Positions 5,158 through 46,823 of a stretch of DNA of 64,000 nt are shown here, in pieces. Location of the stretch: the NCBI RefSeq assembly GCF_002097715.1, contig NZ_CP020739.1, positions 62,001 through 126,000 on the forward strand, given 5' to 3'. Position numbers and translations under genes: made by a program. This stretch comes from Burkholderia ubonensis subsp. mesacidophila. Lineage in GTDB: Bacteria; Pseudomonadota; Gammaproteobacteria; Burkholderiales; Burkholderiaceae. The notes beneath the pieces are model-generated. The model worked only from the letters and a program-made list of their open reading frames with translations. It was not told the DNA's origin and searched no databases. The first letter of the stretch is position 1. Each line of letters starts with the position of its first letter.

Positions 5158-6504
5158 TCACCCGTGCAAGGCGGCATCGAACGCGTGAGGGTGCCGGTCT
5201 CCGGCGTCCGCGAATCCGTTTCGCTGCCAGCGCCGTTTGAGAATCACCGTCGACGCGAAATCGCCGACCGATCGATGCGGGTCCCATTCGATCGGCGAAC
5301 CGAGCAGCACGTCGATCGGATGCACCTCGGAGCCGTCGTCGTTGCGCGCCCTCCCCAGCGTCAACGCGTCGGTCGGTATCGCGGCGATCGAGTCGCCGTC
5401 GAATCCGCGCAACGACCACAGCACGCGCTTCATCTGCGTGAGGTACTGAACCTGGTTGAAGCTGCCGAAGCACTGGAACTGGTTCACGAATGCGATCGAT
5501 GCGAATACCGGGAACAGGCCCGGACACAGAACGCGGTCCCGCAGCGCCGCCGCGACCGACGCCGGCTCCCAGCCCAGGTCGAAGCCCCGTCCGGTCAGGC
5601 GGGCGCCGTCGATGCGCAGTTGCTCGCAGCGATCGCCGTCCGGCCCCGCGCAGCTGAACCAGGAAACATGCGGCAGCGCCTGCCGCAGCCGCGTGTTCAA
5701 TGCGGCATCGAAACACAGCCGCGCCATCGGGTGGCCGTCGTCGAGCAGCACCGTCTGCAGATAGTCGGACACCAGCTCGCATAGATCGAGGAATACCATC
5801 GGACGGCCGAAGATGGCGCTCTCCAGCCTTGCGCACATCGTGGTTGCGAGCGCGGACATGTCGGCGGTGATCGCGGGCGGCACGATGCGCTGCAAGGGTT
5901 CGCTCAGATACGGCAGCAGCTCGTGCGTCCGGTCCGGCACGCGTGCGCCGAACACGAGCCTGCGTGCCAGACGGGCCGGGACGAGCGAGACGCGCCGCTC
6001 GCGCGTCCCGTGACGGCGATCGCGATCCGCGCGCGCCAGGTCGCGCCACGCCGGGCAGCGCGCATCGATCACGTCGCTCAAGCCGTAGCGGTCGCCGAAA
6101 TTCAGGCACCCCGATTTCGCGTCGTTGCTGAACGGCACGCCGCTGAATACGCCGATCACGCAGGGCGTATCGGGGCCGTTCGCAGCCAGCGTCGACAGCC
6201 AGTCGACGCCGAAGAAGCCGGGACCGTTGCTCAGCGTCAGGTGACCGCTGGTCTGCAGCGTCCGGCCGTGCTCCAGGCGGGCGAGCGCGTCCGCGGCGTC
6301 CGCGTCCGGCAGGCCGCTGCGGTCCAGCGCCCGCCGCAGCGCATTCCGGAACGGCGGATCCATCGGCGACGCAGGCCGATAGCGCGCCAGCTCCCGCATG
6401 TAGTCGCCGACAGGCAGGTCGAAGATCGCGAGCATGCGTTCGGCGAACAGGTTCGGCCCGGCGTCGCGCAGCGCCGCACGCGCAAGCTCGGCCGCGCCGG
6501 TCAC
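5158..6504 (-). CDS. unrecognised protein of the biosynthetic locus
   Basis: A 448-aa protein I cannot assign. The GTG start at 6504 overlaps the FkbH stop as GTGA, the same kind of coupling seen elsewhere in this locus, and codon use matches the neighbours. Visible features are a central Gly/Pro-rich segment (GHLTLSNGPGFFGVDWLS), a motif GVFSGVPFSNDAKSG, several conserved-looking Cys (for example SCAGPDGDRC and LCPGLFPVF), and Trp/His-rich patches near the C-terminus. There is no signal peptide or membrane segment. It is the last gene of the minus-strand block with the hydroxyacyl dehydrogenase, ACP and FkbH, so it may act on the ACP-bound C3 unit or on the finished chain. The function is open. 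Confidence 0.7.
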   Translation of the reverse strand: MTGAAELARAALRDAGPNLFAERMLAIFDLPVGDYMRELARYRPASPMDPPFRNALRRALDRSGLPDADAADALARLEHGRTLQTSGHLTLSNGPGFFGVDWLSTLAANGPDTPCVIGVFSGVPFSNDAKSGCLNFGDRYGLSDVIDARCPAWRDLARADRDRRHGTRERRVSLVPARLARRLVFGARVPDRTHELLPYLSEPLQRIVPPAITADMSALATTMCARLESAIFGRPMVFLDLCELVSDYLQTVLLDDGHPMARLCFDAALNTRLRQALPHVSWFSCAGPDGDRCEQLRIDGARLTGRGFDLGWEPASVAAALRDRVLCPGLFPVFASIAFVNQFQCFGSFNQVQYLTQMKRVLWSLRGFDGDSIAAIPTDALTLGRARNDDGSEVHPIDVLLGSPIEWDPHRSVGDFASTVILKRRWQRNGFADAGDRHPHAFDAALHG

Positions 6505-7583
6505 GAACGTGCCGCGCACGACGCGGGCACGCGGTCGAATGCCGTCGCGTCGATCGCGATATACGGCGGCACCGCGCGTTCCCCGGGCGCTTCCAGGCGC
6601 AGGACCTGGATGGCCGGGTCGACCGCCTCCACGCTGTCCGACCGGAAGCCCGCGAGCCGGTAGGTGAGTTCCATCGGCCGGTTGCGGCCGGTGCCGCGCC
6701 AGTCGGCGGTGATGCCCCGGCGCGCCGCTACCCCGCGATTGATGATGGTATGCAGAAACGCGTTCCCGACACCGCGGTTGACGACGCGACACGACGTCAG
6801 GAACAGCCGGATCCGCCAGTCCCGGTCCCCGAGCTCGACGAGCGCCAGGCCGACCGTGCCGTATGTGCCGTAACGATCGTCGACGTCGCAGATCAGTATC
6901 GCGAACCGCTCGTCGTCGAGCAGCGCGTGCAGCGTGTCGCGATCGTACGGAATGCCGGTGGTGTTCATCTGGTTGGTGCGACGCGTCAGCTCCTCGGCGC
7001 GCTCGAGATCGTCCTCGGTCGCCCGCGCGATGCGCATGCGCATGCCGAGGCTTGCGAGGAATGCGTCGGCAGGCCCCTCGAAGCGCTCCTGGTCCGACTT
7101 CCGGCGCGCCTCCTCCTGATAGCGCAGCCGCCGCTCGCCGGCATCCCGGCTGATCACGGCGGGATTCACGTGCGGCAGATCCGGCAGCGTCGCATAGGCG
7201 GCGGCGTCGATGCAGACGACGTTCGGCAGTTCGCTGCGTATCTCGTCGCGCTCGAACGCGAGATCGTCGACCATCATCAGCGCGTTCTCGCCGATGTTCA
7301 GGATCTCGCACAAACGCTTGAGCATCGCCGATTTCGGATACCAGCCGACCTGCGGCGCGACGAAGAACTCGCCGATGCCGAGCCCTTCGAGCCGCGCGAC
7401 CACGTCGTCATGATTGTTCTTGCTCGCGATCGACTGCAGGATGCCGCGCCCGTCCAGTGCCCGGATGATCGCCTCGATGCCGGGCTTCAGGCGTTGCCCG
7501 CCGCCTTCCAGCAGCGCGCCCTCCCACAGCGTGTCATCGCAGTCCCAGACGACGCACTTGGTCACGCCGCGTTCGTCGCGCAT
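6501..7583 (-). CDS. FkbH-like glyceryl-ACP synthase (HAD domain plus GNAT)
   Basis: FkbH-family enzymes take 1,3-bisphosphoglycerate, remove phosphate with a HAD domain and load the glyceryl unit on a free ACP. The HAD motif WDCDDT is at residues 13-18 (Asp14, Asp16). MMVDDLAFERDEI is the late HAD acidic motif, and a GNAT-like half (about residues 190-345) contains LTRRTNQMNTTG, typical of FkbH. The ATG at 7583 has a strong GGAGG six bases upstream and overlaps the ACP gene by 22 bases. A GTG at 7565 is a weaker alternative. The next gene overlaps its stop. Together with ACP, dehydrogenase and acyl-CoA dehydrogenase it points to a hydroxymalonyl-ACP extender. Confidence 0.92.
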   Translation of the reverse strand: MRDERGVTKCVVWDCDDTLWEGALLEGGGQRLKPGIEAIIRALDGRGILQSIASKNNHDDVVARLEGLGIGEFFVAPQVGWYPKSAMLKRLCEILNIGENALMMVDDLAFERDEIRSELPNVVCIDAAAYATLPDLPHVNPAVISRDAGERRLRYQEEARRKSDQERFEGPADAFLASLGMRMRIARATEDDLERAEELTRRTNQMNTTGIPYDRDTLHALLDDERFAILICDVDDRYGTYGTVGLALVELGDRDWRIRLFLTSCRVVNRGVGNAFLHTIINRGVAARRGITADWRGTGRNRPMELTYRLAGFRSDSVEAVDPAIQVLRLEAPGERAVPPYIAIDATAFDRVPASCAARS

Positions 7584-7852
7584 GCATTTCCTCCGGCGGC
7601 GACAGGGGCAGCCCCGGTCAGCCGGGAGTCGATATAAGCGGCGATCGCGCGGATGCTGCCCAGGTTGGCCTGGGTCAGATCGTCGCCCTCGACCGTGAAC
7701 CCGAACGTCGTCTCGATCCAGTCGACGACGGCCATCGCCGTCAACGAGGTCAGCAGCCCACGCTCGAACAGATTCTCTTCCTGATCGATGAACGGCCGGT
7801 TCGTCAGTCCCTGCAGAAACGTCCGGACGGTATCTCGTGTGTCATTGCTCAT
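7562..7852 (-). CDS. free-standing acyl carrier protein (glyceryl/hydroxymalonyl carrier)
   Basis: A 96-aa ACP. The phosphopantetheine-accepting Ser sits in ERGLLTSLTAM, the usual site just before helix II, followed by the amphipathic VVDWIETTFGF helix. Its start overlaps the dehydrogenase stop as ATGA, and the next gene is FkbH, so it is almost certainly the carrier on which the glyceryl unit is loaded and oxidised. The C-terminal 20 residues are an Ala/Gly-rich tail. Confidence 0.9.
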   Translation of the reverse strand: MSNDTRDTVRTFLQGLTNRPFIDQEENLFERGLLTSLTAMAVVDWIETTFGFTVEGDDLTQANLGSIRAIAAYIDSRLTGAAPVAAGGNACATNAA

Positions 7853-8736
7853 GCTTTCGTCTCGCGATAGGTGTGGAATCCCGTTCCCGTCTTGTGCCCC
7901 AGCGATCCGGCCGCGACCAGCCGCGACAGCAGCGCCTTCGGCTCGTAGAAACGGTCATTCGATTCGTCGCGCAGCACGATCAGGCTGTCGCGAATGACGT
8001 CGAGCCCGATGAGGTCGGCGGTCGCGAGCGGCCCCGTCTGGTGCCCGAGGCATCGCACGAATAGCGCGTCGACATCCTCGGCAGAGGCAACGCCGCGCTC
8101 GACGAGGCCGATGGCCTCGTTGATCGCGACCATCAGCACGCGGTTGATCACGAACCCCGTTGCGTCGTTGACGATGTTGAAGCGCTTGCCGAGTCGCCCC
8201 AGAAACCCGGCAACCGTATCGATCGTCTGATCCGACGTGTGCGGCCCGCGGATCAGTTCGACCGCGTCCCGCACCGCCGCGGGATTCATGAAATGGATGC
8301 CGACCGTCCGGTCAGGACGTTGCGTCCACGTATCGATCGTCGCCACCGAGATGCACGACGTGTTGGTCGCAAAGAGCGTGCGGGGCGGACTCGCGTCCTC
8401 GAGCGCCCGGTAGAGCCGCGCCTTCGCGGCGACGTTCTCGGTGATGCATTCGATCGCGATCGCGACGTCGAGCCGGCTCGGCAACGCGTCGACAATGCGG
8501 ATCCGCGCGCAGATGTCGGCGAACGGCGCGCGCGGCGCCGATTCCGGCTTCGCGACGAAGCGCGCAAGCTGATACGCCCGCCTCAGGCGCTCGTTGAACG
8601 AGGCCCGCGCCTGCGCGTCCGTTTCGACGACCGTAACGTCAAACCCGGACATCGCGACATTCAGCGCGATGCCGTTGCCCATGACACCGCCGCCGATCAC
8701 GGCGACGGGAAAATCCGCCACATCGATATCCGTCAT
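7849..8736 (-). CDS. 3-hydroxyacyl-CoA dehydrogenase family oxidoreductase (glyceryl-ACP oxidation)
   Basis: NAD-dependent dehydrogenase, 295 aa, of the 3-hydroxyacyl-CoA dehydrogenase family. The nucleotide-binding loop AVIGGGVMGNGIA is at about residues 12-24. FATNTSCISV, HFMNPA and the NDATGFVINRVL segment are family signatures. In FkbH-type pathways this enzyme oxidises the C3 hydroxyl of glyceryl-ACP to the aldehyde. The start at 8736 was preferred over 8754 because GAGG lies eight bases upstream. It is the first gene of a four-gene block read away from the PKS, so 8737-8966 is probably a shared divergent promoter region. Confidence 0.9.
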   Translation of the reverse strand: MTDIDVADFPVAVIGGGVMGNGIALNVAMSGFDVTVVETDAQARASFNERLRRAYQLARFVAKPESAPRAPFADICARIRIVDALPSRLDVAIAIECITENVAAKARLYRALEDASPPRTLFATNTSCISVATIDTWTQRPDRTVGIHFMNPAAVRDAVELIRGPHTSDQTIDTVAGFLGRLGKRFNIVNDATGFVINRVLMVAINEAIGLVERGVASAEDVDALFVRCLGHQTGPLATADLIGLDVIRDSLIVLRDESNDRFYEPKALLSRLVAAGSLGHKTGTGFHTYRETKA

Positions 8737-8766
8737 TACACGCGCCTCGACCATGCCTCGCGAATT

Positions 8767-8782
8767 CGTCCGGGACCGGACG
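8767..8782. promoter_or_regulatory. palindrome in the divergent promoter region
   Basis: CGTCCGG and CCGGACG separated by two bases, between the minus-strand dehydrogenase (start 8736) and the plus-strand PKS (start 8967). It is a seven-base perfect inverted repeat in the only gap that can hold promoters for both blocks, so it is a candidate operator. No factor is identified; in such GC-rich DNA chance is not excluded. Confidence 0.35.
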
Positions 8783-8966
8783 ATTGCGAGCCATCGTCGT
8801 GGCGAACCAAAGTGGTGTCAAGCTTGCGGCGCAGGTCATATCAACGATGCAATACCTGCGTCCCGCCCATCGATTCGAAGGCGAGAAGCCGCGGCGTGCT
8901 TGACGCTTCGGCGAACGCTCGTGCAAATTTTCTGCTCTCTCAACGCGACTCGTCACGGGAACCCAG

Positions 8967-11900
8967 ATGGCGGATGGTATTGCGGTGGTTGGCATGGCGG
9001 GCCGCTTTCCCGGCGCACCCGATATCGACGCGTTCTGGCGCCTGCTGCATGAAGGCCGCTCCGGCCTGACGGAATTTTCGCTGCGCGAATTGCAGGAATC
9101 GCGCGTGATTGCCGCGAACGACGATCCGCAAGGCTATGTTCGCGTGCGCGGCGTGCTCGGCGACGAAGCCTATTTCGACGCGGGCTACTTCGGTTATGCG
9201 CCGGCCGAGGCCGCCCTGCTCGATCCGCAGGCGCGCCTGTTCCTCGAGTGCGCGGCGGGCGCCCTCGAACACGCCGGATACGGATCGCCCGCGCACCGCG
9301 ACCCGGTGGCGCTGTTCGCGTCGTCACGCCGGTCCGAATACGAGCATTTTCTGCTTCGGCATCTGGACCGCGAGACGCTCGACAGTCCGTTCGCACTCGA
9401 CGGCACCTACGGCGACTTTCTCGCGCTGCGCACCTCGTACAAGCTCGACCTGCGCGGCCCCAGCATGCTCGTGCGGACCGCCTGCTCGAGTTCGCTCGTC
9501 GCGCTTCACCTGGCCTGCCGGAGCCTGCGCAACCGCGAGGCCGGCATGGCCATCGCCGGCGCGGCGTCGATTTCGTGGCCGCCGCGCGCCGGCCGCCACG
9601 CGGCAACGGGCGGCATCATTTCGGCGACCGGCCATTGCCGCCCGTTCGATGCGCGCGCCGACGGCACCGTCAGCGGCGACGCCGTCGTCTGCGTCGTGCT
9701 CAAACGGCTCGACGACGCACTTGCCGCCGGCGACGACATCCTCGCCGTCGTGCTCGGCAGCGCGTCGAACAACGACGGATCCGACAAGATCAGCTTCACC
9801 GCGCCGAGCGTCGACGGCCAGGTCCGGGTAATCCAGGAAGCGCTGCGCGACGCCGGCATCACGGCCTCCGGGATCGGCTACATCGAGGCGCACGGCAGCG
9901 GCACGCCGCTCGGCGATGCGATCGAAATCCAGGCGCTGTCGGAAGCGTACCGGCTGCCGGCGGGCGACGATCACCGGATCGGCATCGGCTCGGTCAAGGC
10001 GTCGGTCGGCCACAGCGACGCGTCGGCCGGCCTCGCGGGATTCGTGAGAACGGTGCTTTGCCTGCGGCACCGCACGCTGGTTCCCACCCCCGGGTTCGAG
10101 GCGCCGAATCCCCTGTTCGACGGCAACGACGCGTTCCTCGAGGTACACCGCGCCGCGCGGCCGTGGACGGAGCGCGTAATCGGCGCCGTGCATTCAGTCG
10201 GCATGGGCGGAACCAACGCCCACGTGATCGTCGGTCCGGCGCCCACCCTGCCGGCGCGATCCGTCACGCAGGCGCCGCAGCTGATTCTATTGTCCGCGCG
10301 AACGCAGCCGGCGCTCGATGCGATGCGGGCCCAGCTCGCCGCGCACCTGCGCAGCCATCCCGATCAGCCGTTCGCCGACGTCGCGTGGACCTTGCAGGCC
10401 GGCCGCGACGCGCGCCCCGTGCGCCACGCGCTCGTTGCCGACGATCCGGTCGATGCGGCGCGCCAGCTGGAAACCCGGATCGTCCATGACTTTCCCGAAA
10501 CGGATCAGGACCTGCCGTTGCGCACGGGCCTGCTGTTCCCCGGCATGGGCGCCGCCGACCTGTCGGCGATGTTCGCGCTCCACGACGAGGTCGCCGCGTT
10601 CCGGCGCGCGCTGGAACGCCGGCTCGACGCGCTGACCGCCTTGTCCGGCACCGACTTCCGCCATGCGTTCGCCAGCCGGCGCGCGACATCCGGGACGTCG
10701 GCCGGGCCCGGCGACGGGCTCGATCAGCCGATCATGTTCGCGCTGCAGCTCTCCCTCTACGACCTGTGGCGCCTGTCGTCGGACGAACCGGCGTTCGTGC
10801 TCGGCTACAGTCTCGGCGAATGGACCGCGGCGACGGTGGCAGGCGTCTATCGCGAGGACGATGCGCTCGCGCTCGTCTGGGAACGCGCGCAGCTGATGCG
10901 CGCCGCGCCGTCCGGCACCCTGCTCGCGGTGCATGCGCCCAAGGAGGGATTCGAGCCGCTGCGCGTGTCCGGTATCGAGATCGCGGCGTACTGTTCGCGC
11001 CGGCTGCTGATCGTCGGTGGGCCGGAGGCGGCGATCGCCGAGCAGGCGATCGCGCTGGAACGACGCAAGATCGCCACGTCGCGCATTGCGTCGCCCCACG
11101 CCTATCACACCGGCCACCTGAGGACCGTCGCCGCAACGCTCGACGAACGCGCGTCGCGCGTCGCCCGGCGCGCGCCGCGCATCCCGTTCGTCTGCCTTCA
11201 TGCGGGCGCCTGGGCCGACACGCCATTGCTCGACGATCGCGCGTACTGGGGGCGACATCTCGCCGACGCGGTGCGGCTCGAGGACGGCATCACGCTGTTG
11301 AACCGGCAGTCTCGGTCGGTGCTCGTCGAACTCGGGCCGGGTTCGTTCCTCGGCGATCTCGTGAAGATTTCGGGTAACCCGTCGCGCCATGCGGTGTTCA
11401 GCCCGTTCGCCGGCACCGGCACGCGCGGCCGCGCGGCCTGGCTGCACATGCTCGGCGCAGCGTGGGAAACCGGCCTGCCCGTCGATGCGGCGCCGCTTCA
11501 CGACGAGCAACCGCGGCGGGTTCCGTTGCCCACCTATCCGTTCGAACGCCAGCGATACGTGGTCGAGGCCGCCGCGCCGCTCGAGGGCGGCGCCACGCGC
11601 CACGCGGGCGAGCCCGCCGACGCCGCGCATCGGGCCACGCCCCGTCGCACGCCGGCCGCGGCGGCGCGGCACGATCTGTATGCCATCTGGGAGCACGTGT
11701 TCGGCGCCCCGCCGCCCGATGACGACGCGCATTTTTTCGAATCCGGCGGCCACTCGCTGCTGGCCATCCAGTTTCTGTACTTCGTCCGGGAACGGCTGTC
11801 GGTCGAGCTGACCGTCGCCGACCTTCGCGCGAATCCGACGGCCGGCGCGCTGCGCGCGCTGATCGATCGTTCCCGCGCCGCCGACAGGGTAGAGCCATGA
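8967..11900 (+). CDS. polyketide synthase, KS-AT-ACP
   Basis: Single minimal type I PKS module, 977 aa. KS is at about residues 5-425 with Cys173 (TACSSS), His309 (EAHGSGT) and His349 (VGHSDASAG), all catalytic residues present. AT is at about 520-810. Its nucleophile motif reads GYSLGEW (Ser615), so the usual His before the Ser is Tyr614, and the later specificity motif reads HAYH. A carrier domain at about 905-975 has FFESGGHSLLA, more PCP-like than ACP-like. No KR, DH, ER or TE is present, so the beta-keto group is left unreduced in cis. Upstream genes supply a hydroxymalonyl-type extender, the likely AT substrate. The thioesterase start overlaps the stop as ATGA. Confidence 0.93.
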   Translation: MADGIAVVGMAGRFPGAPDIDAFWRLLHEGRSGLTEFSLRELQESRVIAANDDPQGYVRVRGVLGDEAYFDAGYFGYAPAEAALLDPQARLFLECAAGALEHAGYGSPAHRDPVALFASSRRSEYEHFLLRHLDRETLDSPFALDGTYGDFLALRTSYKLDLRGPSMLVRTACSSSLVALHLACRSLRNREAGMAIAGAASISWPPRAGRHAATGGIISATGHCRPFDARADGTVSGDAVVCVVLKRLDDALAAGDDILAVVLGSASNNDGSDKISFTAPSVDGQVRVIQEALRDAGITASGIGYIEAHGSGTPLGDAIEIQALSEAYRLPAGDDHRIGIGSVKASVGHSDASAGLAGFVRTVLCLRHRTLVPTPGFEAPNPLFDGNDAFLEVHRAARPWTERVIGAVHSVGMGGTNAHVIVGPAPTLPARSVTQAPQLILLSARTQPALDAMRAQLAAHLRSHPDQPFADVAWTLQAGRDARPVRHALVADDPVDAARQLETRIVHDFPETDQDLPLRTGLLFPGMGAADLSAMFALHDEVAAFRRALERRLDALTALSGTDFRHAFASRRATSGTSAGPGDGLDQPIMFALQLSLYDLWRLSSDEPAFVLGYSLGEWTAATVAGVYREDDALALVWERAQLMRAAPSGTLLAVHAPKEGFEPLRVSGIEIAAYCSRRLLIVGGPEAAIAEQAIALERRKIATSRIASPHAYHTGHLRTVAATLDERASRVARRAPRIPFVCLHAGAWADTPLLDDRAYWGRHLADAVRLEDGITLLNRQSRSVLVELGPGSFLGDLVKISGNPSRHAVFSPFAGTGTRGRAAWLHMLGAAWETGLPVDAAPLHDEQPRRVPLPTYPFERQRYVVEAAAPLEGGATRHAGEPADAAHRATPRRTPAAAARHDLYAIWEHVFGAPPPDDDAHFFESGGHSLLAIQFLYFVRERLSVELTVADLRANPTAGALRALIDRSRAADRVEP

Positions 11901-12721: not shown

Positions 12722-12725
12722 CATC

Positions 12726-17675: not shown

Positions 17676-17711
17676 TATTTCCGCCACCTTGGGCGGTCGA
17701 AATCGCGCAAC

Positions 17712-34946: not shown

Positions 34947-34956
34947 CTCTCCTCCG

Positions 34957-37223: not shown

Positions 37224-37233
37224 GGTGTCGCTC

Positions 37234-38277: not shown

Positions 38278-38329
38278 TCCTCTCTCCTTGACTCGATATC
38301 GCAGCAATCCGGCATGCGTTTCGGTTTCT

Positions 38330-39487: not shown

Positions 39488-40185
39488 GCGCGGTCTCCGG
39501 CGGCGGGCGCATCGTGCAACGGCATGGCGCGCAGCCCGGACGCTTCGGCGAGACGCCATTGCGTCACTTCGCGCAGGTGGCGCATCGTGATGCCGGGATG
39601 GATCTCGCGCACGATCCCGCCTTGCGGCCCCACGTCGATCACCGCGAGATCGGTATAGACGCGCGACACGACGCGCGCCCCCGTCAGCGGCAGCGAGACC
39701 TCGCGCACCAGGCGCGAACGGCCGTCGGCCGTGCAGTGCTCCATGCCGACCCAGATCGCCTGGGCGCCGATCGCGATGTCCATCGCCCCGCCGACTGCCG
39801 GCGGCACCCCGGATTTGCGGCGGTCCCAGCTGGCCAGGTCTCCGGCTTCGGAAATCTCGTAGCCGCCGAGAAACGCGATGTCGACATGGCGGCCGCGCAG
39901 CATCGCGAACGATTCGCAGCAGTCGAAATACGACGCGCCGGCCTGCACGGTGACGAACTGCTGGCTCGCGTTGACGAGATTGCGGTTGATCGCGCAGTCG
40001 GGCGCGATGCCGCCGACGCCGAGAATGCCGTTCTCGCTATGGAAGATCACCTCGCGTCCGGCCGGGACATGGCGCACCGCTTCGGTGGGAATGCCCACGC
40101 CGAGGTTGACGTACGCGCCTTCGAAGAAATCCTGCGCGGCGCGCCACGCAATCTGCTGGCGCCGCGCTTGCTGTGCATCGCTCAT
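39484..40185 (-). CDS. 3-oxoacid CoA-transferase, subunit B
   Basis: A 233-aa beta subunit of a family I CoA-transferase. The catalytic Glu is in HSENGILG, and VNLGVGIPTEAV is the N-terminal signature. Its start overlaps the A-subunit stop as ATGA, as expected for an obligate heterodimer. In lysine fermenters an AtoDA-type CoA-transferase works beside lysine aminomutases, so the pair here may have come as part of the same metabolic module. It would form the CoA thioester of a short keto or amino acid. Confidence 0.92.
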   Translation of the reverse strand: MSDAQQARRQQIAWRAAQDFFEGAYVNLGVGIPTEAVRHVPAGREVIFHSENGILGVGGIAPDCAINRNLVNASQQFVTVQAGASYFDCCESFAMLRGRHVDIAFLGGYEISEAGDLASWDRRKSGVPPAVGGAMDIAIGAQAIWVGMEHCTADGRSRLVREVSLPLTGARVVSRVYTDLAVIDVGPQGGIVREIHPGITMRHLREVTQWRLAEASGLRAMPLHDAPAAGDRA

Positions 40186-40841
40186 AGGGTCACCACCTGA
40201 TCGACGTAAATGCCCGGCGTGACCACTGCCTCGGGGTCGAGCTCGCCGAGCGCGACCATGCGGTCGACCTCGGCGATCGTGCGCCGCGCCGCGCCGGCCA
40301 TCACCGGACCGAAATTGCGTTGTGCCGCCTGGTAGACGAGATTCCCCCAGCGGTCGGCAAGATGCGCGCGGATCAGCGCGAAATCGGCATGAAGCGGATA
40401 TTCGAGCAGGCAGCGCTGGCCGTTGATCTCGCGAACTTCCTTGCCGGCGGCGAGCACGGTGTCGACGGCCGTCGGCGTGTAGAAGCCCGCGATGCCCGCC
40501 TTCGCCGCACGGATGCGCTCGGACAAGGTGCCTTGCGGCACGAGTTCCAGCTCCACCTCGCCGCGCGCGTAGCGCTCCTCGAAGACGAACGAGCCGGTGC
40601 GCCGCGGGTACGCGCAGATCATCTTGCTCACCTGCCCGCGCTTCAGCAGCATCGCGACGCCCTCCAGCGCCCGGCCCGCGTTGTTCGACACGATCGTGAG
40701 GTTCCGCGGCCCCAGTTCGACGAGCGCTTCCACGAGACCGAACGGCATCCCCGGGTCGCCAAAGCCGCTGACGAGAATCACGGCTCCGTCGGTCACGTCC
40801 GCCAGCGCGTCGACCGCGCGCGATACGAACTTGTTGATCAT
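40182..40841 (-). CDS. 3-oxoacid CoA-transferase, subunit A
   Basis: A 219-aa alpha subunit. SGFGDPGMPFGLVEAL is the family I glycine-rich CoA-binding segment and TIVSNNAG follows in the usual place. It starts on the ThDP-enzyme stop (ATGA) and overlaps the B subunit. Donor and acceptor are unknown; acetoacetate/acetyl-CoA-type chemistry is typical of close relatives. Confidence 0.92.
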   Translation of the reverse strand: MINKFVSRAVDALADVTDGAVILVSGFGDPGMPFGLVEALVELGPRNLTIVSNNAGRALEGVAMLLKRGQVSKMICAYPRRTGSFVFEERYARGEVELELVPQGTLSERIRAAKAGIAGFYTPTAVDTVLAAGKEVREINGQRCLLEYPLHADFALIRAHLADRWGNLVYQAAQRNFGPVMAGAARRTIAEVDRMVALGELDPEAVVTPGIYVDQVVTL

Positions 40842-42484
40842 CGTTCATTCCTCGATGGGTTCCCGGCGCCTCTCGTGCGCGGCAAGCGCAACAGCGGCCA
40901 GGGGTCTGACATCGCGCCGACGGGCACCTCGATCACGGTCGGGAGATCGCGGCCCAGCGCGTCCCGAATCGCATCGGCCAGCGCGGCGGCCGTGTCGACC
41001 CGCTGGCCGAACGCGCCGAATGCGCGCGCATACGCGACGAAATCCGGGTTGTGCAGCGCAGTGGCCAGCTGGTAGCCGTTGGCCGCCTGTTCGCGCAACA
41101 CGTTTCCGTAGGCGTTGTCGTTGAAGACGACCGCAATGACGCCGAGCCGGTGCTGCACGGCCGTCGCCAGATCGTTCGCCGTATACAGGAAGCCGCCGTC
41201 GCCGTTGATCGAGACGACCGCGCGGCGCCGCTGCGCGGCCTTCGCACCCAGCGCCGCGGCAAAACCGTAGCCGAGCGCGCCCTGGTAGCCGGACGTGATG
41301 TAGGTACGCGGCGCGTAGACCGGATAGCCGATGCGGCACGCGTAGCCGATTTGCGTCAACTCGTCGACGAGGATGCCGTCGTCGGGAAGCGCGGCGCGCA
41401 GCGCCGCGACGAATCCGGCCTGCGGCGAAAGCGCGGCGAACTCGCGCTCGACCGCGTCGCGAACCGCCGCCAGCTCGACGGCGCGCGACGGCGCGCGATA
41501 ATCCGCGAGCCGCTGCTCGAGGCCGTCGATCGCCGCTTGCGCGTCGCCGACGATGGCCAGCCCCGCGAAGCCGGCTTCCATGCGCGTGCGATCGCTGTCG
41601 ATCCGGATGACCTTCAGTGCGTCGTCGGTGCCCCATTCGCAATACGGCCGGCCGAGACGCGTGCCGACCGCCAGCACGACGTCCGCGGTTTGCCACAGAC
41701 GATGCCCGGCAGGCACCGACATCGCGAGCGGATGCCGCGCATCGAGCACGCCGCGACCGCCGCCGTTCGACACCACGGGCGTTTGCAGGCGCTCGGCGAG
41801 CCGGCCCAGCGACGCGCGCGCGCCGATCGCGCCGCCGCCGACCACCAGGAGCGGACGCCGGGCGCCCGCCAGCCACGCCGCGGCACGATCGAGCACATGC
41901 GGGTCCGGCTGTTCGTCCGCCGTGCGGCCGACGCCGTCGCCCGCCGCGCGCGCGCCCGCCGGCACCGGCATGCGCAGCACGTCCGGCGGCACCTCGAGCG
42001 CGACCGGCCCGGGCGCGCCGGCGCGCATCGCCGCCAGCGCCGCGTCGAACGTCGCGGCCGCGTCGTCGGCGCACGCGATCCGGTCCGCCCACTTGGTGAC
42101 CGACCGCAGCGTGAGCAGCTGATCCGGCAGCTCATGCAGATAGCCGAGCCGCTTGCCGATGGCGGCCAGCGGAATCTGGCCGGTGATGCAGAGCACCGGC
42201 GCGCCCGCCGCATAGGCGACGGACAGGCCCGCGAGCGCATTCAGCGCGCCCGGCCCCGGCGGCACGATGCACACGCCCATTGCGCCGGTCGCGCGCGCCG
42301 CGCCGTAGGCCATGTAGGCCGCGGTCTGCTCATGCCGCACGACGACGGCCTCGATGCGGTCCCGGCGTACGTGCAGCGCCTCGAAAAGCGGCGAAAGCTG
42401 GTCGCCCGGCATGACGTACACGGTGTCGACACCGCGCGCAATCAAGGCGTCGACGAGCTGGCCGGCGACAGTAGTGACTGACAT
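40838..42484 (-). CDS. thiamine-diphosphate enzyme (acetolactate synthase/benzoylformate decarboxylase family)
   Basis: A 548-aa ThDP enzyme. The catalytic Glu is in VVRHEQTAAYMA, and the ThDP/Mg motif begins GDGGFL and continues to NDNAYGN. The middle FAD/Rossmann-like domain is also present. The ATG at 42484 has GAGGGG seven bases upstream; the ATG at 42499 overlaps the previous stop and is possible. The family decarboxylates 2-oxo acids or joins two-carbon units to acceptors. Being in an operon with DapA, a CoA-transferase and an aminotransferase, it may process pyruvate or the oxo acid from diaminohexanoate. No small regulatory subunit of acetolactate synthase is seen. Confidence 0.9.
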   Translation of the reverse strand: MSVTTVAGQLVDALIARGVDTVYVMPGDQLSPLFEALHVRRDRIEAVVVRHEQTAAYMAYGAARATGAMGVCIVPPGPGALNALAGLSVAYAAGAPVLCITGQIPLAAIGKRLGYLHELPDQLLTLRSVTKWADRIACADDAAATFDAALAAMRAGAPGPVALEVPPDVLRMPVPAGARAAGDGVGRTADEQPDPHVLDRAAAWLAGARRPLLVVGGGAIGARASLGRLAERLQTPVVSNGGGRGVLDARHPLAMSVPAGHRLWQTADVVLAVGTRLGRPYCEWGTDDALKVIRIDSDRTRMEAGFAGLAIVGDAQAAIDGLEQRLADYRAPSRAVELAAVRDAVEREFAALSPQAGFVAALRAALPDDGILVDELTQIGYACRIGYPVYAPRTYITSGYQGALGYGFAAALGAKAAQRRRAVVSINGDGGFLYTANDLATAVQHRLGVIAVVFNDNAYGNVLREQAANGYQLATALHNPDFVAYARAFGAFGQRVDTAAALADAIRDALGRDLPTVIEVPVGAMSDPWPLLRLPRTRGAGNPSRNER

Positions 42485-42495
42485 GTCGGCACCCC

Positions 42496-43572
42496 TCATC
42501 GGTCTTGCGCGAATGCGGGAGCCGGGCGGTGCCCGGATGCCGCGACTCGCGGGTAGGACGCATGCAGCACGTCATGCACGGCGACGGGCGGCACCGCGGC
42601 CGCGAGGCGCGCGACGAACGCCCCCGAGTCGAAGCTGCGCAACTGCGGCGCGACCGGGTTCACCGTGATCGCACACAGACGGGTGTCGCGCAGCACGCAC
42701 AGGTGCAGCCCGCGCTTCTCGTACCAGCCGACGCCGTTTCGATTGAAATAGAACTTCGAGCTGTCGGTTGCGACGACCCGCACGTCGGCATCGTCCTCGC
42801 ACGCGCGCAGCACGCTGTCGAGGAACGCCTCGCAGACGGCGCCGCGCAGCAGGATGCGGGCGAACGGCCCGTGTTCGGCACGCCATTGCTTCAGCGCGTC
42901 GGTCCGGTCGGTGAGCCCGAATCCGGGCGGCAACGCGATCCGCTTCCCCGCCACCGTCACCAGATGGTCGGACGATCCGTGCCCGACGCCGTCCGCCGGC
43001 GTGACCGGCAGCCTGAGCCGGCGGATTTCCTCGACCGTGTACCTGACGACCGCGTCGAGATCCTCGCCAAGAATGGCGCCCGTCGCGACGATGACCGCAT
43101 CGGTGACGTCGGGGCTGGACGCGCAGCGCCGGTTGATCGATCCATCGACGATCACCTTCTCGGCGCCCAGCGCGAGCATGCGTTCGATGACTGCCTTCAT
43201 CTGCGCGACCACGCTCGGCCCGGCCACCTCGACGACGCCGGCCTCCGCCATCCGGGCGATCGTGACCGTCCCGAGCGGGTTGCGATAGGGCGTGGCCACC
43301 AGCTCGTCATGACGCAGGCCGCTGCGCTTGAGCAACGAGCGCGTGGTCGCGACCAGCGCGCCTGCGGGCAGGTGGATCCGCGGCTTCAGGATGGTTTCGT
43401 CGAGCACGTCGCACGCCTCGCCGTCGCGGCCGATCGACGTGATGCCGATCGCGCATCCGCGCGCCGACAATTCGTCGACGAGCACCGTCAGCGCGACCGT
43501 CTTGCCCGTGTTCTTCGCCAACCCGTAGATGGCGACGCGCCGCGCGTCCGCGCAAAGCTCTGAGATTCGCAT
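42496..43572 (-). CDS. kamB: lysine 5,6-aminomutase reactivase subunit (KamB-like P-loop protein)
   Basis: A 358-aa nucleotide-binding protein. The Walker A loop GLAKNTGKT is at residues 17-25, and GITSIGRDGE and VIVDGSINRR follow, matching what I recall of KamB, the subunit that with KamC restores inactivated aminomutase by exchanging damaged cobalamin. It is 10 bases downstream of the aminomutase beta gene. No KamC (MutS-like ATPase) is present in the window. Its presence supports the reading that the aminomutase is used and needs repair. The start at 43572 was chosen where family-like sequence begins. Confidence 0.78.
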   Translation of the reverse strand: MRISELCADARRVAIYGLAKNTGKTVALTVLVDELSARGCAIGITSIGRDGEACDVLDETILKPRIHLPAGALVATTRSLLKRSGLRHDELVATPYRNPLGTVTIARMAEAGVVEVAGPSVVAQMKAVIERMLALGAEKVIVDGSINRRCASSPDVTDAVIVATGAILGEDLDAVVRYTVEEIRRLRLPVTPADGVGHGSSDHLVTVAGKRIALPPGFGLTDRTDALKQWRAEHGPFARILLRGAVCEAFLDSVLRACEDDADVRVVATDSSKFYFNRNGVGWYEKRGLHLCVLRDTRLCAITVNPVAPQLRSFDSGAFVARLAAAVPPVAVHDVLHASYPRVAASGHRPAPAFAQDR

Positions 43573-43582
43573 CGTGGGCCGG

Positions 43583-44353
43583 TTACGCAGAGGTGGACAG
43601 CAACGGAGCGGCGCTCTTGACGGCGAGCCGCCGGGCGATGAAGGACGCGACGTGGTTCGGGTAGCAGCCCTTCGAGAAGCCTGCGTCATAGCCGAGCTCC
43701 TTTGCCAGCTCGTCGGATACGCGCGGCCCTCCGCAGATCAGCAGCACGCGCTCGCGCAGCCCCTGCGAGTCGAGCATGTCGGCGAGCTGCGTCAGATTGT
43801 GGATATGCAGGCTTTGCTGCGTCACCGTCTGCGACACCAGAATCGCGTCCGCGCTCACGGCGATAGCTTTTTCGATCAGGTCGCCGTTCGCGACCTGGCT
43901 GCCGAGGTTGTAGGTCTCGAAACAGTTATAGGCTTCGAGGCCGGGCTCGCCGTTGAACCCCTTCAGATTGAGCATCGCGTCGATGCCGACGCTGTGCGTG
44001 TCGGTGCCGGTGCTCGCACCGATCACGACGATCTTGCGGCCGATGTGCTGCTCGACGAAGCGCTCCACTTCGCTGCGCGACATGAACGCCTCGACGGTCT
44101 CGTCGGTCAGCTCCGACAGATCGACGCCGACAGGGCACTGCGCATAGGCGATGAAATAGGTGTAGCCCTGGGTCAGCGCAATGCTGTGCACGACCTCGGG
44201 CCGGTACAGGCCCATCGCTTCGAGCAGGCGCATCGCGGCCTTTTTTGCCGTGTTCGAATAGGTGACCGGCAACGTGAACGCGATCTGTACATATCCGTCG
44301 CCGTGATGGTCCGCGTACGGCAACACGTGCTGGGAGGAGGAGTGAGCCGTCAT
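43583..44353 (-). CDS. kamE: lysine 5,6-aminomutase beta (cobalamin-binding) subunit
   Basis: A 256-aa subunit. The base-off cobalamin motif DxHxxG is seen as DTHSVG at residues 118-123, and Lys131 in LNLKGFNG is at the place of the PLP-binding lysine of the family. The enzyme moves the terminal amino group of D-lysine (or beta-lysine) from C6 to C5 using adenosylcobalamin and PLP. It starts on the alpha stop as ATGA. The length fits KamE (about 260) and not the large subunit of ornithine 4,5-aminomutase (about 730). Confidence 0.92.
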   Translation of the reverse strand: MTAHSSSQHVLPYADHHGDGYVQIAFTLPVTYSNTAKKAAMRLLEAMGLYRPEVVHSIALTQGYTYFIAYAQCPVGVDLSELTDETVEAFMSRSEVERFVEQHIGRKIVVIGASTGTDTHSVGIDAMLNLKGFNGEPGLEAYNCFETYNLGSQVANGDLIEKAIAVSADAILVSQTVTQQSLHIHNLTQLADMLDSQGLRERVLLICGGPRVSDELAKELGYDAGFSKGCYPNHVASFIARRLAVKSAAPLLSTSA

Positions 44354-45897
44354 GCTTGTGCCATCCTTTCGAGAAACGGATTCACGTAGTATTTGTGCCG
44401 CGCGATCACGCCGTCGGCCCCGCGCCCTTCGTCGATGGCGCGGCGCACGCCGCCGAACATCCCGCTCTGCACTGCCCCGAACACGCCGTCCTGCACGCCG
44501 GCGAGCAAATCGCGCGCGCCGGCGAGCACCGCCTGCGCGCGGCGCTGGATGAACCCGTCCTCTCGGAAGGTGACCTCGTCGACCAGGTTCTTCGCGAACC
44601 GATGCACGTAGCGCGCGCATTCGAGCCCGAGCACCCGGTCGTGGATGTGCGGCGTGAAGATGCCCTCGGTTGGCACGCCGAGCGTCTGGATGCGCTGTTT
44701 CGTCAGGATCGACACGAAATTGAACATCGTGTCGTTCGCGTGCGTCCGGAACAGGTTGCCGTCCATGAAGCGCGTCGGCGGCATGTACTTGACCGGACAG
44801 CGCGGAAACAGCTGCCGTGTCAGTTCCGCGTGCGCGATCTCGAACAGCAGCCCGTTCTCGGTGTCCGGATGGATCTCGAACGCGTTGCCGATGCCGATCT
44901 GCCCCTCGGGCACGCCGCACGCCATTGCGAGCTCGTAATTGATCAGCTGCGACGCCACCACCGACGGCGCGGCCTCGACCGGGTCGTCGGTCCGCAGGTA
45001 GTTGTCCTCGCCGGTGTTGATCGTGATGCCGAAGTAGCCGTTCGCCATCCGCGAGAACTGCTGGTCGACGATGGTCCGGACCATGTTGATGTCGCGGTAC
45101 AGGATCCCGTACAGCGCGTCGTTGACCATGTTGTCGAGCCCTTCGATCGCGCCCATCACCGCGATCTCGGGCATGCAGAGGCCTGAGCAGAAGCTCGACA
45201 GCCGGACATAGCGCCCGTTGCTGCGCGTCCAGTCGTCGAGCGCCTCACGCATGATCCGGAAATTCTCCTGCGTCGCGTACGTGCCGCCATACCCTTCCGT
45301 CGTCGGGCCGTACGGCACGAAGTCGAGCAGGCTCTGCGCGGTCGAGCGGATCACGGCAACGATATCGCCGCCGTGCTCGGCCACGGCCTTCGCATGGACG
45401 ATGTCTTCGTAAACGTTGCCGGTCGCGGTCAGCACGTACAGCAGGGGTACCGAGTCGTCCGTCGCACGCTGGCGCGCGTCGCGCCGCTGCTCGTGCTTTT
45501 CGGTCAGCCGATCGAGGATGTCGTGCGCTGCCGTGTCGGCGATGTTGGACGCTTCATCGGGATTCAACGGATCAAGCCCGGCAAGCTGGACGCGGCCCGA
45601 CGCGACCGCTTCGACGAACTTCTGTGCGGTCGTGCCGTGGCGCTTCATCCCGCTTGCGATCCAGTAGGCGGCGCCCATCTCGACGCCGCCGATGCGCTTC
45701 AACGCATCGACGAACACATTGGGCAACGGCACGCCCGATTCGTCGACGCCGTCGACGCCGAACAGCCGGACGACCGCGCGCTCGACCGAAACGGTGGTCT
45801 TGTTCTCGATCGCGGCCAGCGTATCGGCCGCCACACGCTTCGCGAGCGTGCGGCATTCGTCGACCAGCGCCGGATTCAGGGCAAGGCGATCGATCAT
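44350..45897 (-). CDS. kamD: lysine 5,6-aminomutase alpha subunit
   Basis: A 515-aa catalytic TIM-barrel subunit of D-lysine/beta-lysine 5,6-aminomutase, matching KamD in length. Conserved-looking stretches include YGGTYATQENFRIMREALDD, GLDNMVNDALYG, TGEDNYLRTDDPVEA and KYMPPTRFMDGNLFRTHA. The start at 45897 overlaps the dapA stop as ATGA. Neither a lysine 2,3-aminomutase nor a lysine racemase is in the window, so D-Lys or beta-Lys must come from elsewhere. Its products would be 2,5- or 3,5-diaminohexanoate. In lysine fermentation this starts catabolism; here the NRPS neighbourhood suggests precursor synthesis. Confidence 0.92.
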   Translation of the reverse strand: MIDRLALNPALVDECRTLAKRVAADTLAAIENKTTVSVERAVVRLFGVDGVDESGVPLPNVFVDALKRIGGVEMGAAYWIASGMKRHGTTAQKFVEAVASGRVQLAGLDPLNPDEASNIADTAAHDILDRLTEKHEQRRDARQRATDDSVPLLYVLTATGNVYEDIVHAKAVAEHGGDIVAVIRSTAQSLLDFVPYGPTTEGYGGTYATQENFRIMREALDDWTRSNGRYVRLSSFCSGLCMPEIAVMGAIEGLDNMVNDALYGILYRDINMVRTIVDQQFSRMANGYFGITINTGEDNYLRTDDPVEAAPSVVASQLINYELAMACGVPEGQIGIGNAFEIHPDTENGLLFEIAHAELTRQLFPRCPVKYMPPTRFMDGNLFRTHANDTMFNFVSILTKQRIQTLGVPTEGIFTPHIHDRVLGLECARYVHRFAKNLVDEVTFREDGFIQRRAQAVLAGARDLLAGVQDGVFGAVQSGMFGGVRRAIDEGRGADGVIARHKYYVNPFLERMAQA

Positions 45898-46823
45898 GAT
45901 GCGCTCCGTTTCGAGCGCGCGCCCGCGTCGGCCACGTCGTCGCACCATTGCGCGAGCTCTGCCAGGATCGCGTCGACCCGCGCCCGCTTGTCCGCCGCCA
46001 GCGGCACGAGCGGCAGGCGAATGCCGTCGGGCATCCAGCCGAGCCGGGCCAGCATGTACTTGACCGGAATCGGGTTCGTGTCGATCGACAGCGCTTCGTA
46101 GAGCGGCAGCAGCTTCGCGTTCAACGCGCGCGCGGCCCCCACCTCGCCATCCAGCGCCAGGGAACAAAGACGGGCCATCGCACGCGGCGCCACATTGGCC
46201 GCGACCGAAATCGTCCCGTGTCCGCCCAGCAACATGTAGGCGAGCGTGGTCGCATCGTCCCCCGAGTAGCAGCCGAAGCCGGGCGGCAGTTGCTCGAACA
46301 GCCGCGCCGCGCGGGCCAGATCGCTCGTCGCGTCCTTGATGCCGACGATGCGCGGATCCTTCGCGAGTGCGACGACCGTTGCGTCGTGCATATCCGCACC
46401 GGTACGCGACGGGATGTTGTAGAGGATCTGCGGGAAATCGGTTGCAACGGCAACGGTTTCGAAATGCCGGCGCATGCCCTCCTGATTGGGGCGCACGTAG
46501 TAAGGTACGACGGATAGCCCGCTCGAGGCGCCGGCGTCACGGGCCATCTGCGACAGTTCGATGGCCTCGTGAGTGGAATTCGCGCCCACGCCGGCCACCA
46601 CGGGCATCCGCCCCCTGCAACGGTCGACGACGTGTTGAACGAGATGGGCCTGCTCCTGGGCACTCATCGTCGCCGACTCCCCCGTCGTTCCGGCCACTAC
46701 GAGCGCCGCCGTGCCTGCCGCCACGTGCTGCTCGATGATTTCTGCAAGTGCTTCATAATCGATTTGACCCGCGCCCGACATCGGCGTAGCCAGAGCGACG
46801 AGACTGCCCTGAACCACATTCAT
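45894..46823 (-). CDS. dapA: 4-hydroxy-tetrahydrodipicolinate synthase (extra copy)
   Basis: A 309-aa DapA-family aldolase condensing pyruvate with aspartate semialdehyde, the committed step to lysine. GTTGESATM, the Tyr of VVPYYVRPNQEG, NIPSRTG with its Arg, and the Schiff-base Lys of VGIKDATSD are all present, so it looks catalytically complete and canonical rather than a divergent aldolase. It is the first gene of the long minus-strand operon and is coupled to kamD, so it probably raises lysine supply, possibly as a feedback-insensitive isoform. A divergent use with another aldehyde is not excluded. Confidence 0.88.
   Translation of the reverse strand: MNVVQGSLVALATPMSGAGQIDYEALAEIIEQHVAAGTAALVVAGTTGESATMSAQEQAHLVQHVVDRCRGRMPVVAGVGANSTHEAIELSQMARDAGASSGLSVVPYYVRPNQEGMRRHFETVAVATDFPQILYNIPSRTGADMHDATVVALAKDPRIVGIKDATSDLARAARLFEQLPPGFGCYSGDDATTLAYMLLGGHGTISVAANVAPRAMARLCSLALDGEVGAARALNAKLLPLYEALSIDTNPIPVKYMLARLGWMPDGIRLPLVPLAADKRARVDAILAELAQWCDDVADAGARSKRSAS

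What the first reader, a model, noticed from the sequence alone, without database searches (positions are those of the whole stretch)
5158..46823. A 42-kb PKS/NRPS locus combining a hydroxymalonyl unit with a lysine 5,6-aminomutase
One locus holds the four-part hydroxymalonyl-ACP set, a KS-AT-ACP PKS, an A-PCP-C-A-PCP NRPS, a Cy-A(Cys)-PCP-TE NRPS and a cobalamin-dependent lysine 5,6-aminomutase with dapA. Hydroxymalonyl units occur in zwittermicin-type paths, and aminomutases of this type in lysine fermentation. I know no compound that uses both. The assembly order (module 1 lacks a C domain; the last module has a TE) is consistent with a short peptide-polyketide containing a diamino acid, an alpha-hydroxy-beta-keto or reduced unit, and Cys.
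Basis: partly seen in the sequence, partly recalled or inferred. Interest (0 to 1): 0.8.

Follow-up and report, generated by a model that had tools for sequence, protein, structure and literature searches.

The report
Lysine aminomutase within PKS/NRPS island
A Burkholderia-type bacterium carries an acquired 42-kb set of genes that looks built to make an unknown small molecule, and it includes a vitamin-B12 lysine-rearranging enzyme normally seen in lysine-fermenting anaerobes, which probably makes an unusual building block.

Summary
Window 5.2-46.8 kb encodes FkbH, ACP, 3HCDH and an acyl-CoA dehydrogenase, a KS-AT-ACP PKS, an A-PCP-C-A-PCP NRPS, a Cy-A(Cys)-PCP-TE NRPS, and dapA-kamD-kamE-kamB.

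The kam genes head a run of 21 minus-strand genes (46823 to 21222) with no gap over 69 bp. The run includes the Cys NRPS and the dehydrogenase, so an unrelated catabolic operon is unlikely. I also found a stand-alone carrier protein beside an acyl ligase, a NAT-type acyltransferase, and TPP, CoA-transferase, aminotransferase and oxidase genes.

[quoted passage not shown] KamDE most likely makes 2,5-diaminohexanoate from lysine, which is then remodelled into a building block (inferred). The cluster sits in a 47.6-kb insert that three compared Burkholderia replicons lack. Lys-AminoMut_A occurs in 1 of 65 genomes of the genus and 1 of 399 of the order, only here.

The paper searches listed no cluster pairing a lysine 5,6-aminomutase with NRPS/PKS genes; no MIBiG comparison was possible. 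The product is unknown. The nearest logic is vicenistatin, where a B12 glutamate mutase feeds a PKS through a ligase and stand-alone ACP.

The parts
5158..6504 (-). unknown protein X (start uncertain; GTG at 6519 or 6504, ATG at 6435 or 6399 are candidates); its last ~37 codons lie in DNA shared with other replicons
   Evidence: no Pfam match at 0.05-0.1 and no significant PDB match; only plasmid match at E 0.01 is the 37-codon tail; starts
6501..7583 (-). FkbH: glyceryl-ACP loading, hydroxymalonyl-ACP set
   Evidence: TIGR01686 240.7 bits, cut-off 146.65
7562..7852 (-). stand-alone ACP of the hydroxymalonyl set (96 aa)
   Evidence: PF00550 31.9 bits; ATG start checked
7849..8754 (-). 3-hydroxyacyl-CoA dehydrogenase, hydroxymalonyl set
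   Evidence: PF02737/PF00725
8967..11900 (+). PKS module KS-AT-ACP; AT motifs GYSLG, ATS at the RXR place, HAYH
   Evidence: motifs; compared with PMC4207774 passages
11897..12721 (+). type II thioesterase
   Evidence: PF00975
12726..17675 (+). NRPS A-PCP-C-A-PCP; A codes DAMHVGGMI and DSWDIGLIG; C motif NHLSVDG
17712..18401 (+). PgeF/YfiH-type protein (family name recalled; PF02578)
   Evidence: PF02578 136 bits, cut-off 22.9
18403..19647 (+). MFS transporter
   Evidence: PF07690; start
19700..21280 (+). family 5 (oligopeptide-type) solute-binding protein
   Evidence: PF00496
21222..22391 (-). acyl-CoA dehydrogenase, putative last step to hydroxymalonyl-ACP
   Evidence: PF00441/PF02771/PF02770; start
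22399..23340 (-). LysR regulator
   Evidence: PF03466/PF00126; start
23410..24849 (-). MFS efflux pump, DHA2/EmrB type
   Evidence: TIGR00711 169.5, below its 230.2 cut-off
24846..26141 (-). MupA/Atu3671-family FMN luciferase-like monooxygenase
   Evidence: TIGR04020 423.7 bits, cut-off 244.45
26187..30239 (-). NRPS Cy-A(Cys)-PCP-TE
30279..31511 (-). flavin monooxygenase of the HsaA / p-hydroxyphenylacetate hydroxylase C2 type
   Evidence: NF045629 282.8 bits, below the 450 cut-off; PDB 2rfq best, 2jbr lower
31508..32395 (-). LCM-family SAM methyltransferase
   Evidence: PF04072; TIGR00027 149.5 bits, cut-off 93.55
32379..33800 (-). stand-alone acyl-AMP/CoA ligase
   Evidence: PF00501/PF13193; best PDB matches oxalate- and malonyl-CoA ligases
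33814..34068 (-). second stand-alone carrier protein (84 aa, motif LKLESLRM)
   Evidence: PF00550 18.7 bits, just below the 20.8 cut-off
34113..34946 (-). arylamine N-acyltransferase family (RifF-like amide synthase role is recalled analogy)
   Evidence: PF00797 34.6 bits, cut-off 22.8; PDB NATs E 3e-5 and weaker, GdmF only E 0.34
34957..35778 (-). enoyl-CoA hydratase/isomerase family
   Evidence: PF00378
35775..37223 (-). FAD amine/amino-acid oxidase (DAO; ThiO-like)
   Evidence: PF01266; TIGR02352 147.6, below its 250.8 cut-off; start
37234..38277 (-). Fe(II)/2-oxoglutarate oxygenase
   Evidence: PF14226/PF03171; PDB 9ovh best
38330..39487 (-). class I/II aminotransferase
   Evidence: PF00155; NF004770 415.7, just below 422
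39484..40185 (-). 3-oxoacid CoA-transferase subunit B
   Evidence: TIGR02428 233.4, just below 243.55
40182..40841 (-). 3-oxoacid CoA-transferase subunit A
   Evidence: TIGR02429 316.3, cut-off 128.5
40838..42499 (-). TPP enzyme, acetolactate synthase / 2-oxoacid decarboxylase family
   Evidence: NF006122 635 bits, cut-off 571
42496..43572 (-). KamB, aminomutase reactivase subunit
   Evidence: NF052386 262 bits, cut-off 210
43583..44353 (-). KamE, lysine 5,6-aminomutase beta subunit
   Evidence: NF052385 333.7 bits, cut-off 280; alignment to PDB beta subunits
44350..45897 (-). KamD, lysine 5,6-aminomutase alpha subunit
   Evidence: PF09043 703.7 bits; PDB 8t0v/9q1a/1xrs
45894..46823 (-). DapA, first gene of the run
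   Evidence: TIGR00674 332.3 bits, cut-off 206.15
4103..51696 (.). insert relative to the syntenic third replicon of other Burkholderia (edges from the B. stagnalis comparison)

Best explanation
This is one horizontally acquired biosynthetic gene cluster, and the lysine 5,6-aminomutase block is part of it. DapA raises lysine supply. KamDE (B12 and PLP), kept active by KamB, moves the 6-amino group of lysine to C5, giving 2,5-diaminohexanoate. The aminotransferase, DAO-type oxidase, TPP enzyme, 2OG oxygenase, CoA-transferase and ECH-family enzyme remodel this, for example to a 5-methylpyrroline or 4-aminopentanoyl unit. The acyl ligase loads the product on the stand-alone ACP (33814-34068), or an NRPS A domain takes it up; the NAT-type acyltransferase moves or caps it. 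The A-PCP-C-A-PCP NRPS starts the chain, the PKS adds hydroxymalonate, the Cy-A-PCP-TE module adds and cyclises Cys and releases the product, and the flavin, LLM and LCM enzymes tailor it. Shown: gene content, order, gaps, conserved motifs, no match for KamA or Kdd in the genome, insertion site. Inferred: every substrate, the assembly order and the product.
For: - Same-strand run dapA to acyl-CoA dehydrogenase: 21 genes, gaps of at most 69 bp, nine 4-bp overlaps. It joins kam, the Cys NRPS and the fourth hydroxymalonyl gene.
- KamE keeps the DxHxxG cobalamin motif and a Lys 11 residues after its His, aligned with the PDB beta subunits (the Lys as the PLP lysine is recalled). KamD aligns over about 509 residues with the solved alpha subunits.
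- KamA family: no match in the 100%-complete genome while 9 of 14 control genomes ring. Kdd: no match (no control rang). kamC, kce, kal: no BLAST match in the window. Among 80 relatives kamC is found in 68, kamA in 67, kdd in 66.
- The cluster lies in a 47.6-kb insert; in three Burkholderia replicons the same two flanking genes are 1.3-2.1 kb apart.
- Only G000 has Lys-AminoMut_A among 65 genus genomes and 399 of the order; no control genome rang, but the own genome does with 704 bits.
- AT motifs fit ACP-linked extender units.
- Precedent: a B12 glutamate mutase with ligase VinN and ACP VinL supplies the vicenistatin starter (PMC11284099 passages).
Against: No metabolite, expression or enzyme data. 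A1 and A2 specificities are unreadable. ACP2 scores just under its Pfam cut-off. The left half has a plus-strand unit and a minus-strand unit apart from the right run, so two products are possible. KamDE needs D-lysine or beta-lysine as classically described (recalled); no lysine racemase was identified in the window. KamC, which sits beside KamB in fermenters such as L007, has no match in the window and was not sought in the genome. Lack of kamA, kdd and kce near kamD is not unique: 12 of 80 loci lacked all three by BLAST, many of them short or cut, but L002, L046 and L051 are full 21.5-kb loci. The first Asp of the Cy motif is Asn.
Confidence: 0.7

Rival explanations
1. Two adjacent clusters: the left PKS/A-PCP-C-A-PCP unit with the hydroxymalonyl set makes one product, and the right run (kam block, ligase-ACP, Cy-A-PCP-TE) makes another.
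For: The two NRPS genes are on opposite strands and their units meet at about 21.2-21.3 kb. The right run has its own TE, ligase, ACP and efflux pump. The left NRPS has no TE domain and would need the discrete type II TE.
Against: The acyl-CoA dehydrogenase that would complete the hydroxymalonyl set lies in the right run. The left NRPS lacks a releasing TE domain and the right NRPS begins with Cy, so they complement each other. Both lie in one insert.
Confidence: 0.17
2. The kam block is an independent lysine-degrading operon that landed next to the NRPS/PKS genes.
For: KamDE and CoA-transferase genes also neighbour each other in lysine-fermentation operons such as L007. AtoD/AtoA relatives are present here.
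Against: No KamA-family and no Kdd match in the genome; no kal, kce or kamC match in the window. Four-base overlaps tie the block to downstream genes, and the run continues into an NRPS. The scoA DNA is about 70% identical to stretches in other Burkholderia genomes and elsewhere in this genome, which hints at a different origin from kam (inference).
Confidence: 0.08
3. KamDE serves the cluster but acts on another substrate, such as ornithine, a hydroxylysine or a carrier-bound lysine, so the building block is not derived from 2,5-diaminohexanoate.
For: The window KamD sits on a long branch with only L002 (58% identity), away from the fermentation enzymes. A 2OG oxygenase lies in the same run.
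Against: Both subunits score far above the D-ornithine enzyme, and dapA as first gene points to lysine. The tree tool warns about long branches.
Confidence: 0.15

Closest known systems
Vicenistatin cluster (glutamate mutase VinIH, ligase VinN, stand-alone ACP VinL)
   Same: An AdoCbl/PLP mutase supplies an amino-acid unit that an acyl-activating enzyme loads on a discrete ACP before an assembly line (PMC11284099, passages).
   Different: Different mutase (lysine 5,6-aminomutase, not glutamate mutase); NRPS/PKS with Cys module, not a macrolactam PKS; no VinO-type decarboxylase identified; product unknown.
Zwittermicin A hydroxymalonyl-ACP branch (ZmaA AT)
   Same: AT with GYSxG and a non-basic RXR motif, as in the paper's tables, and a last FAD-dependent oxidation step (PMC4207774, passages); the FkbH, ACP and 3HCDH parts of that set are recalled.
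   Different: One KS-AT-ACP module without KR; no aminomalonyl branch seen; a lysine aminomutase and a Cys Cy module are added.
Lysine fermentation operon (for example L007, a Bacteroidetes MAG)
   Same: KamB, KamD, KamE and a CoA-transferase.
   Different: No KamA, KamC, Kdd, Kce or Kal match in the window; order kamD-kamE-kamB rather than kamA-kamB-kamC-kamD-kamE; embedded with NRPS, PKS and tailoring genes.
Actinobacteria MAG L002 kamD-kamE-kamB
   Same: Closest KamD found (58% identity) and the same kamD-kamE-kamB order, with no fermentation partner found by BLAST in about 10 kb either side.
   Different: The 15 neighbour reading frames scanned with Pfam include lysyl-tRNA-synthetase-type, amidase and citrate synthase genes and no NRPS or PKS domain.
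Arylamine N-acyltransferases and the related amide synthases (RifF, GdmF; relation recalled)
   Same: PF00797 above cut-off and weak PDB matches to NATs.
   Different: Low similarity (GdmF itself only E 0.34); the acyl donor and acceptor are unknown.

Membership tests
Lysine 5,6-aminomutase (KamDE) | alpha subunit (Lys-AminoMut_A) and beta subunit models above cut-off | tested here: met
   703.7 bits, cut-off 25; 333.7, cut-off 280
Lysine 5,6-aminomutase (KamDE) | cobalamin DxHxxG motif and PLP lysine of the beta subunit | tested here: met
   GTDTHSVG...NLKG aligned with GTDAHTVG...NMKG of PDB beta subunits; role of the Lys recalled
Lysine 5,6-aminomutase (KamDE) | 1,2-amino shift on D-lysine or beta-lysine | not testable with these tools
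   needs an enzyme assay
Lysine fermentation pathway | lysine 2,3-aminomutase (KamA) | tested here: not met
   TIGR00238: 0 matches in the own genome; 9 of 14 controls ring
Lysine fermentation pathway | Kdd | tested here: not met
   0 matches in the own genome; no control genome rang, but the model hits two L007 proteins
Lysine fermentation pathway | Kce, Kal and KamC beside kamDE | tested here: not met
   no BLAST match of the L007 proteins in the 64-kb window; not sought in the whole genome
Hydroxymalonyl-ACP extender pathway | FkbH, ACP, 3HCDH, acyl-CoA dehydrogenase | tested here: met
   the dehydrogenase matches several acyl-CoA dehydrogenase models below their cut-offs, so its role is inferred
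Hydroxymalonyl-ACP extender pathway | AT motifs of ACP-linked extender units (GYSxG; no basic residue in RXR) | tested here: met
   GYSLG; ATS eight residues before HAYH against the tables in PMC4207774
Methoxymalonyl-ACP pathway | FkbG-type O-methyltransferase in the set | tested here: inconclusive
   only an LCM-family methyltransferase was found; its substrate is unknown
NRPS heterocyclization (Cy) domain | DxxxxDxxS motif | tested here: not met
   NLWTLDAIS: Asn for the first Asp, which EpoB, Irp2 and BmdB keep
NRPS heterocyclization (Cy) domain | overall similarity to Cy rather than C domains, with the later Thr and Asp | tested here: met
   best PDB hits EpoB, Irp2, BmdB; T of VTFTS and D of LLDHQ kept (catalytic role recalled)
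Vicenistatin-type starter pathway | B12 mutase plus stand-alone ligase and ACP | tested here: met
   kamDE, ligase 32379-33800, ACP 33814-34068; ACP score just below cut-off
Vicenistatin-type starter pathway | glutamate mutase and macrolactam-forming PKS | tested here: not met
   no such genes among the window proteins scanned

The most novel reading that the evidence does not exclude
A lysine 5,6-aminomutase has been recruited from fermentative metabolism into secondary metabolism of a Burkholderia-type bacterium: KamDE makes 2,5-diaminohexanoate from lysine without KamA, and the following enzymes turn it into a C-methylated amine or pyrroline unit that is joined to a hydroxymalonate-derived carbon and a Cys-derived ring, giving a new structural class.
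Probability: 0.4. Interest if true: 0.75.

Novelty: new variant of a known kind. Interest (0 to 1): 0.6.

Why it matters
If true, it adds a B12 radical aminomutase, so far placed in lysine fermentation, to the tools that natural-product pathways use to make unusual amino acids. It also offers a route to a compound with an uncommon mix of units. KamDE with a KamB-type reactivase but no neighbouring KamC also gives a chance to test what the reactivase needs. Clusters of unknown product are common, which limits the interest.

Tried and rejected
Rejected: kam as an unrelated catabolic operon. Rejected: the S66 peptidase as a cluster resistance gene; it is about 91.6% identical to copies on B. ambifaria CF3 and Paraburkholderia PREW-6R replicons, and no other window DNA matched the 17 kb and 30 kb compared around them (in PREW-6R one window MFS protein also matched a stretch at 22% identity). 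Set aside: the purA copy at 58 kb, which is also on the three compared replicons.

Led nowhere: literature for the A codes; NAT-like gene in plasmids (no match); unknown protein X; TPP, NRPS, FkbH, LCM and Cys NRPS relatives in plasmids, in which the listed best rows are 31-46% identical (in one search one record of 2247 is in the 60-80% band, not looked at). The Martelella relative (H85, 40%) has a different gene set. No structure prediction was run.

Results against my reading: no metabolite evidence; Cy motif change; ACP2 below cut-off; KamD tree with a long-branch warning; 12 of 80 relatives also lack kamA, kdd and kce nearby. In the class search 6 of 369 genomes matched Lys-AminoMut_A; besides the own genome, five matched only weakly (best 145-162 bits against 704) over positions 148-506, perhaps ornithine-type enzymes (not checked). 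In some searches none of the 14 control genomes rang.

Full report
OBSERVATION. The window is contig 3, bases 62001-126000, of a 7.84-Mb, 4-contig genome. Its flanks match third replicons of three Burkholderia species at roughly 75-87% DNA identity, so the host is a Burkholderia-type bacterium of unnamed species.

ANATOMY. Left half: unknown X, FkbH, ACP and 3HCDH on the minus strand; PKS KS-AT-ACP, type II TE, NRPS A-PCP-C-A-PCP, a PgeF-type gene, an MFS pump and an oligopeptide-type binding protein on the plus strand. Right half: a minus-strand run dapA, kamD, kamE, kamB, TPP enzyme, scoA, scoB, aminotransferase, 2OG oxygenase, DAO, ECH, NAT, ACP, ligase, LCM methyltransferase, flavin monooxygenase, Cy-A-PCP-TE, LLM monooxygenase, MFS, LysR, acyl-CoA dehydrogenase. 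That is 21 genes with no gap over 69 bp and nine 4-bp overlaps. In one search the first guesses for the DAO, MFS1, X, ACP and acyl-CoA dehydrogenase starts were wrong. Searches gave ATG starts in open frames for MFS1 (18403), acyl-CoA dehydrogenase (22391), LysR (23340), DAO (37223) and ACP (7852); the X start stays uncertain.

DOMAINS. The PKS has TACSSS, EAHGSG and KASVGH in the KS and GYSLG and HAYH in the AT; the residues at the RXR position read ATS. PMC4207774 (passages read) tabulates GYSxG and non-basic RXR in ATs for ACP-linked hydroxymalonyl and aminomalonyl units, against GHSxG in CoA-type ATs. The C domain reads NHLSVDG. The Cy domain's best PDB matches are EpoB, Irp2 and BmdB, but its motif reads NLWTLDAIS, with Asn for the first Asp.

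AMINOMUTASE. KamD and KamE align nearly end to end with the solved D-lysine 5,6-aminomutase subunits and only weakly with the ornithine enzyme. The cobalamin motif and the aligned Lys are kept. The genome has no KamA-family match (9 of 14 controls ring) and no Kdd match (no control rang). As a yardstick, the L007 operon carries kal, kce, two kdd, kamA, kamB, kamC and CoA-transferase genes beside kamDE. Among 80 relatives fetched from species genomes, BLAST found kamC in 68, kamA in 67, kdd in 66 and kce in 58; 12 of 80 lack kamA, kdd and kce, and some loci are cut by contig ends. The window and L002 have no match to any of the four. Without KamA the likely substrate is alpha-lysine and the product 2,5-diaminohexanoate (inference from known chemistry, recalled).

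RARITY AND ORIGIN. In the species-genome scan 264 of 275 pattern stretches encode a relative; the best 80 were kept, and the closest is 58% identical, in an actinobacterial MAG with the same kamD-kamE-kamB order. Close kin of the own genome may be left out of that scan, and relatives lacking the six exact peptide patterns would be missed. None of the 80 loci gave a match to the window's PKS or NRPS proteins. Lys-AminoMut_A matches 1 of 65 genus genomes, 1 of 399 of the order and 6 of 369 of the class, five of these weak; in the genus and order searches the single match is the own genome, and no control genome rang. DNA of window 24846-44840 gives in the other 64 genus genomes only listed matches of about 1.1 kb or less, in NRPS, LLM and CoA-transferase stretches (capped list). 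Plasmid records show no cluster relative by megablast or KamD tblastn. Seven plasmid records match both flanks of the cluster; three of them were compared. Against B. stagnalis the backbone match stops at 4102 and resumes at 51697; in B. stagnalis, B. multivorans and B. pyrrocinia the MBL-fold hydrolase gene and parA are 1.3-2.1 kb apart. So a 47.6-kb insert holds the cluster plus an S66 gene and an IS3-type transposase.

MECHANISM. The best reading is one acquired cluster with its own lysine-derived building block, as set out under Best explanation. The nearest characterised logic is vicenistatin, where an AdoCbl/PLP glutamate mutase, the ligase VinN and the stand-alone ACP VinL supply the starter (PMC11284099, passages). 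The aminotransferase plus TPP pair recalls transamination followed by 2-oxoacid decarboxylation (NCBIfam relatives include 5-guanidino-2-oxopentanoate decarboxylase, below its cut-off), so loss of C1 after transamination is possible; this is inference.

LITERATURE. Searches pairing 6-aminomutase with biosynthetic gene cluster (3 papers, 2 listed), polyketide and lysine (5), nonribosomal peptide (1) and Burkholderia (2), 5-diaminohexanoate with biosynthesis (22, 15 listed), and hydroxymalonyl terms (2; 253 of which 25 listed; 6) listed no paper whose title or abstract start describes such a cluster. I read passages of PMC2667541 (5,6-LAM among B12 proteins found in only 2-26 organisms), PMC11611611, PMC6411801, PMC11284099 and PMC4207774; the rest only as listings. 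Most subscription papers and MIBiG were not searched.

VERDICT. Novelty: new variant of a known kind.

Noticed in passing
window 4171-5271: S66 LD-carboxypeptidase gene about 91.6% identical in DNA to copies on a B. ambifaria conjugative plasmid (near IS elements) and a Paraburkholderia replicon; it looks like a mobile passenger at the edge of the insert.
   Followed up: partly
window 50476-51495: Four copies of TTGTCACGTGACAAC just before parAB, two of them with the leading G that completes a 16-bp palindrome; probably parS sites of the third replicon.
   Followed up: no
window 17712-18401: A PF02578 (PgeF/YfiH-type) gene lies directly after the NRPS gene in the plus-strand unit.
   Followed up: no
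window 48800-49747: IS3-type transposase between the cluster and the replication genes.
   Followed up: no
G000, whole genome: 71 matches to the AA-adenylation model, 28 above its cut-off: an NRPS-rich genome.
   Followed up: no
L098 (Martelella pMM593): A Cy-A-PCP-TE NRPS 40% identical to the window's Cys NRPS, with a carrier protein, two FAD oxidoreductases and an aminothiazoline-carboxylate hydrolase gene nearby.
   Followed up: no
L002:10001-13560: kamD-kamE-kamB beside a lysyl-tRNA-synthetase-type gene in an actinobacterial MAG, without fermentation partners by BLAST.
   Followed up: partly
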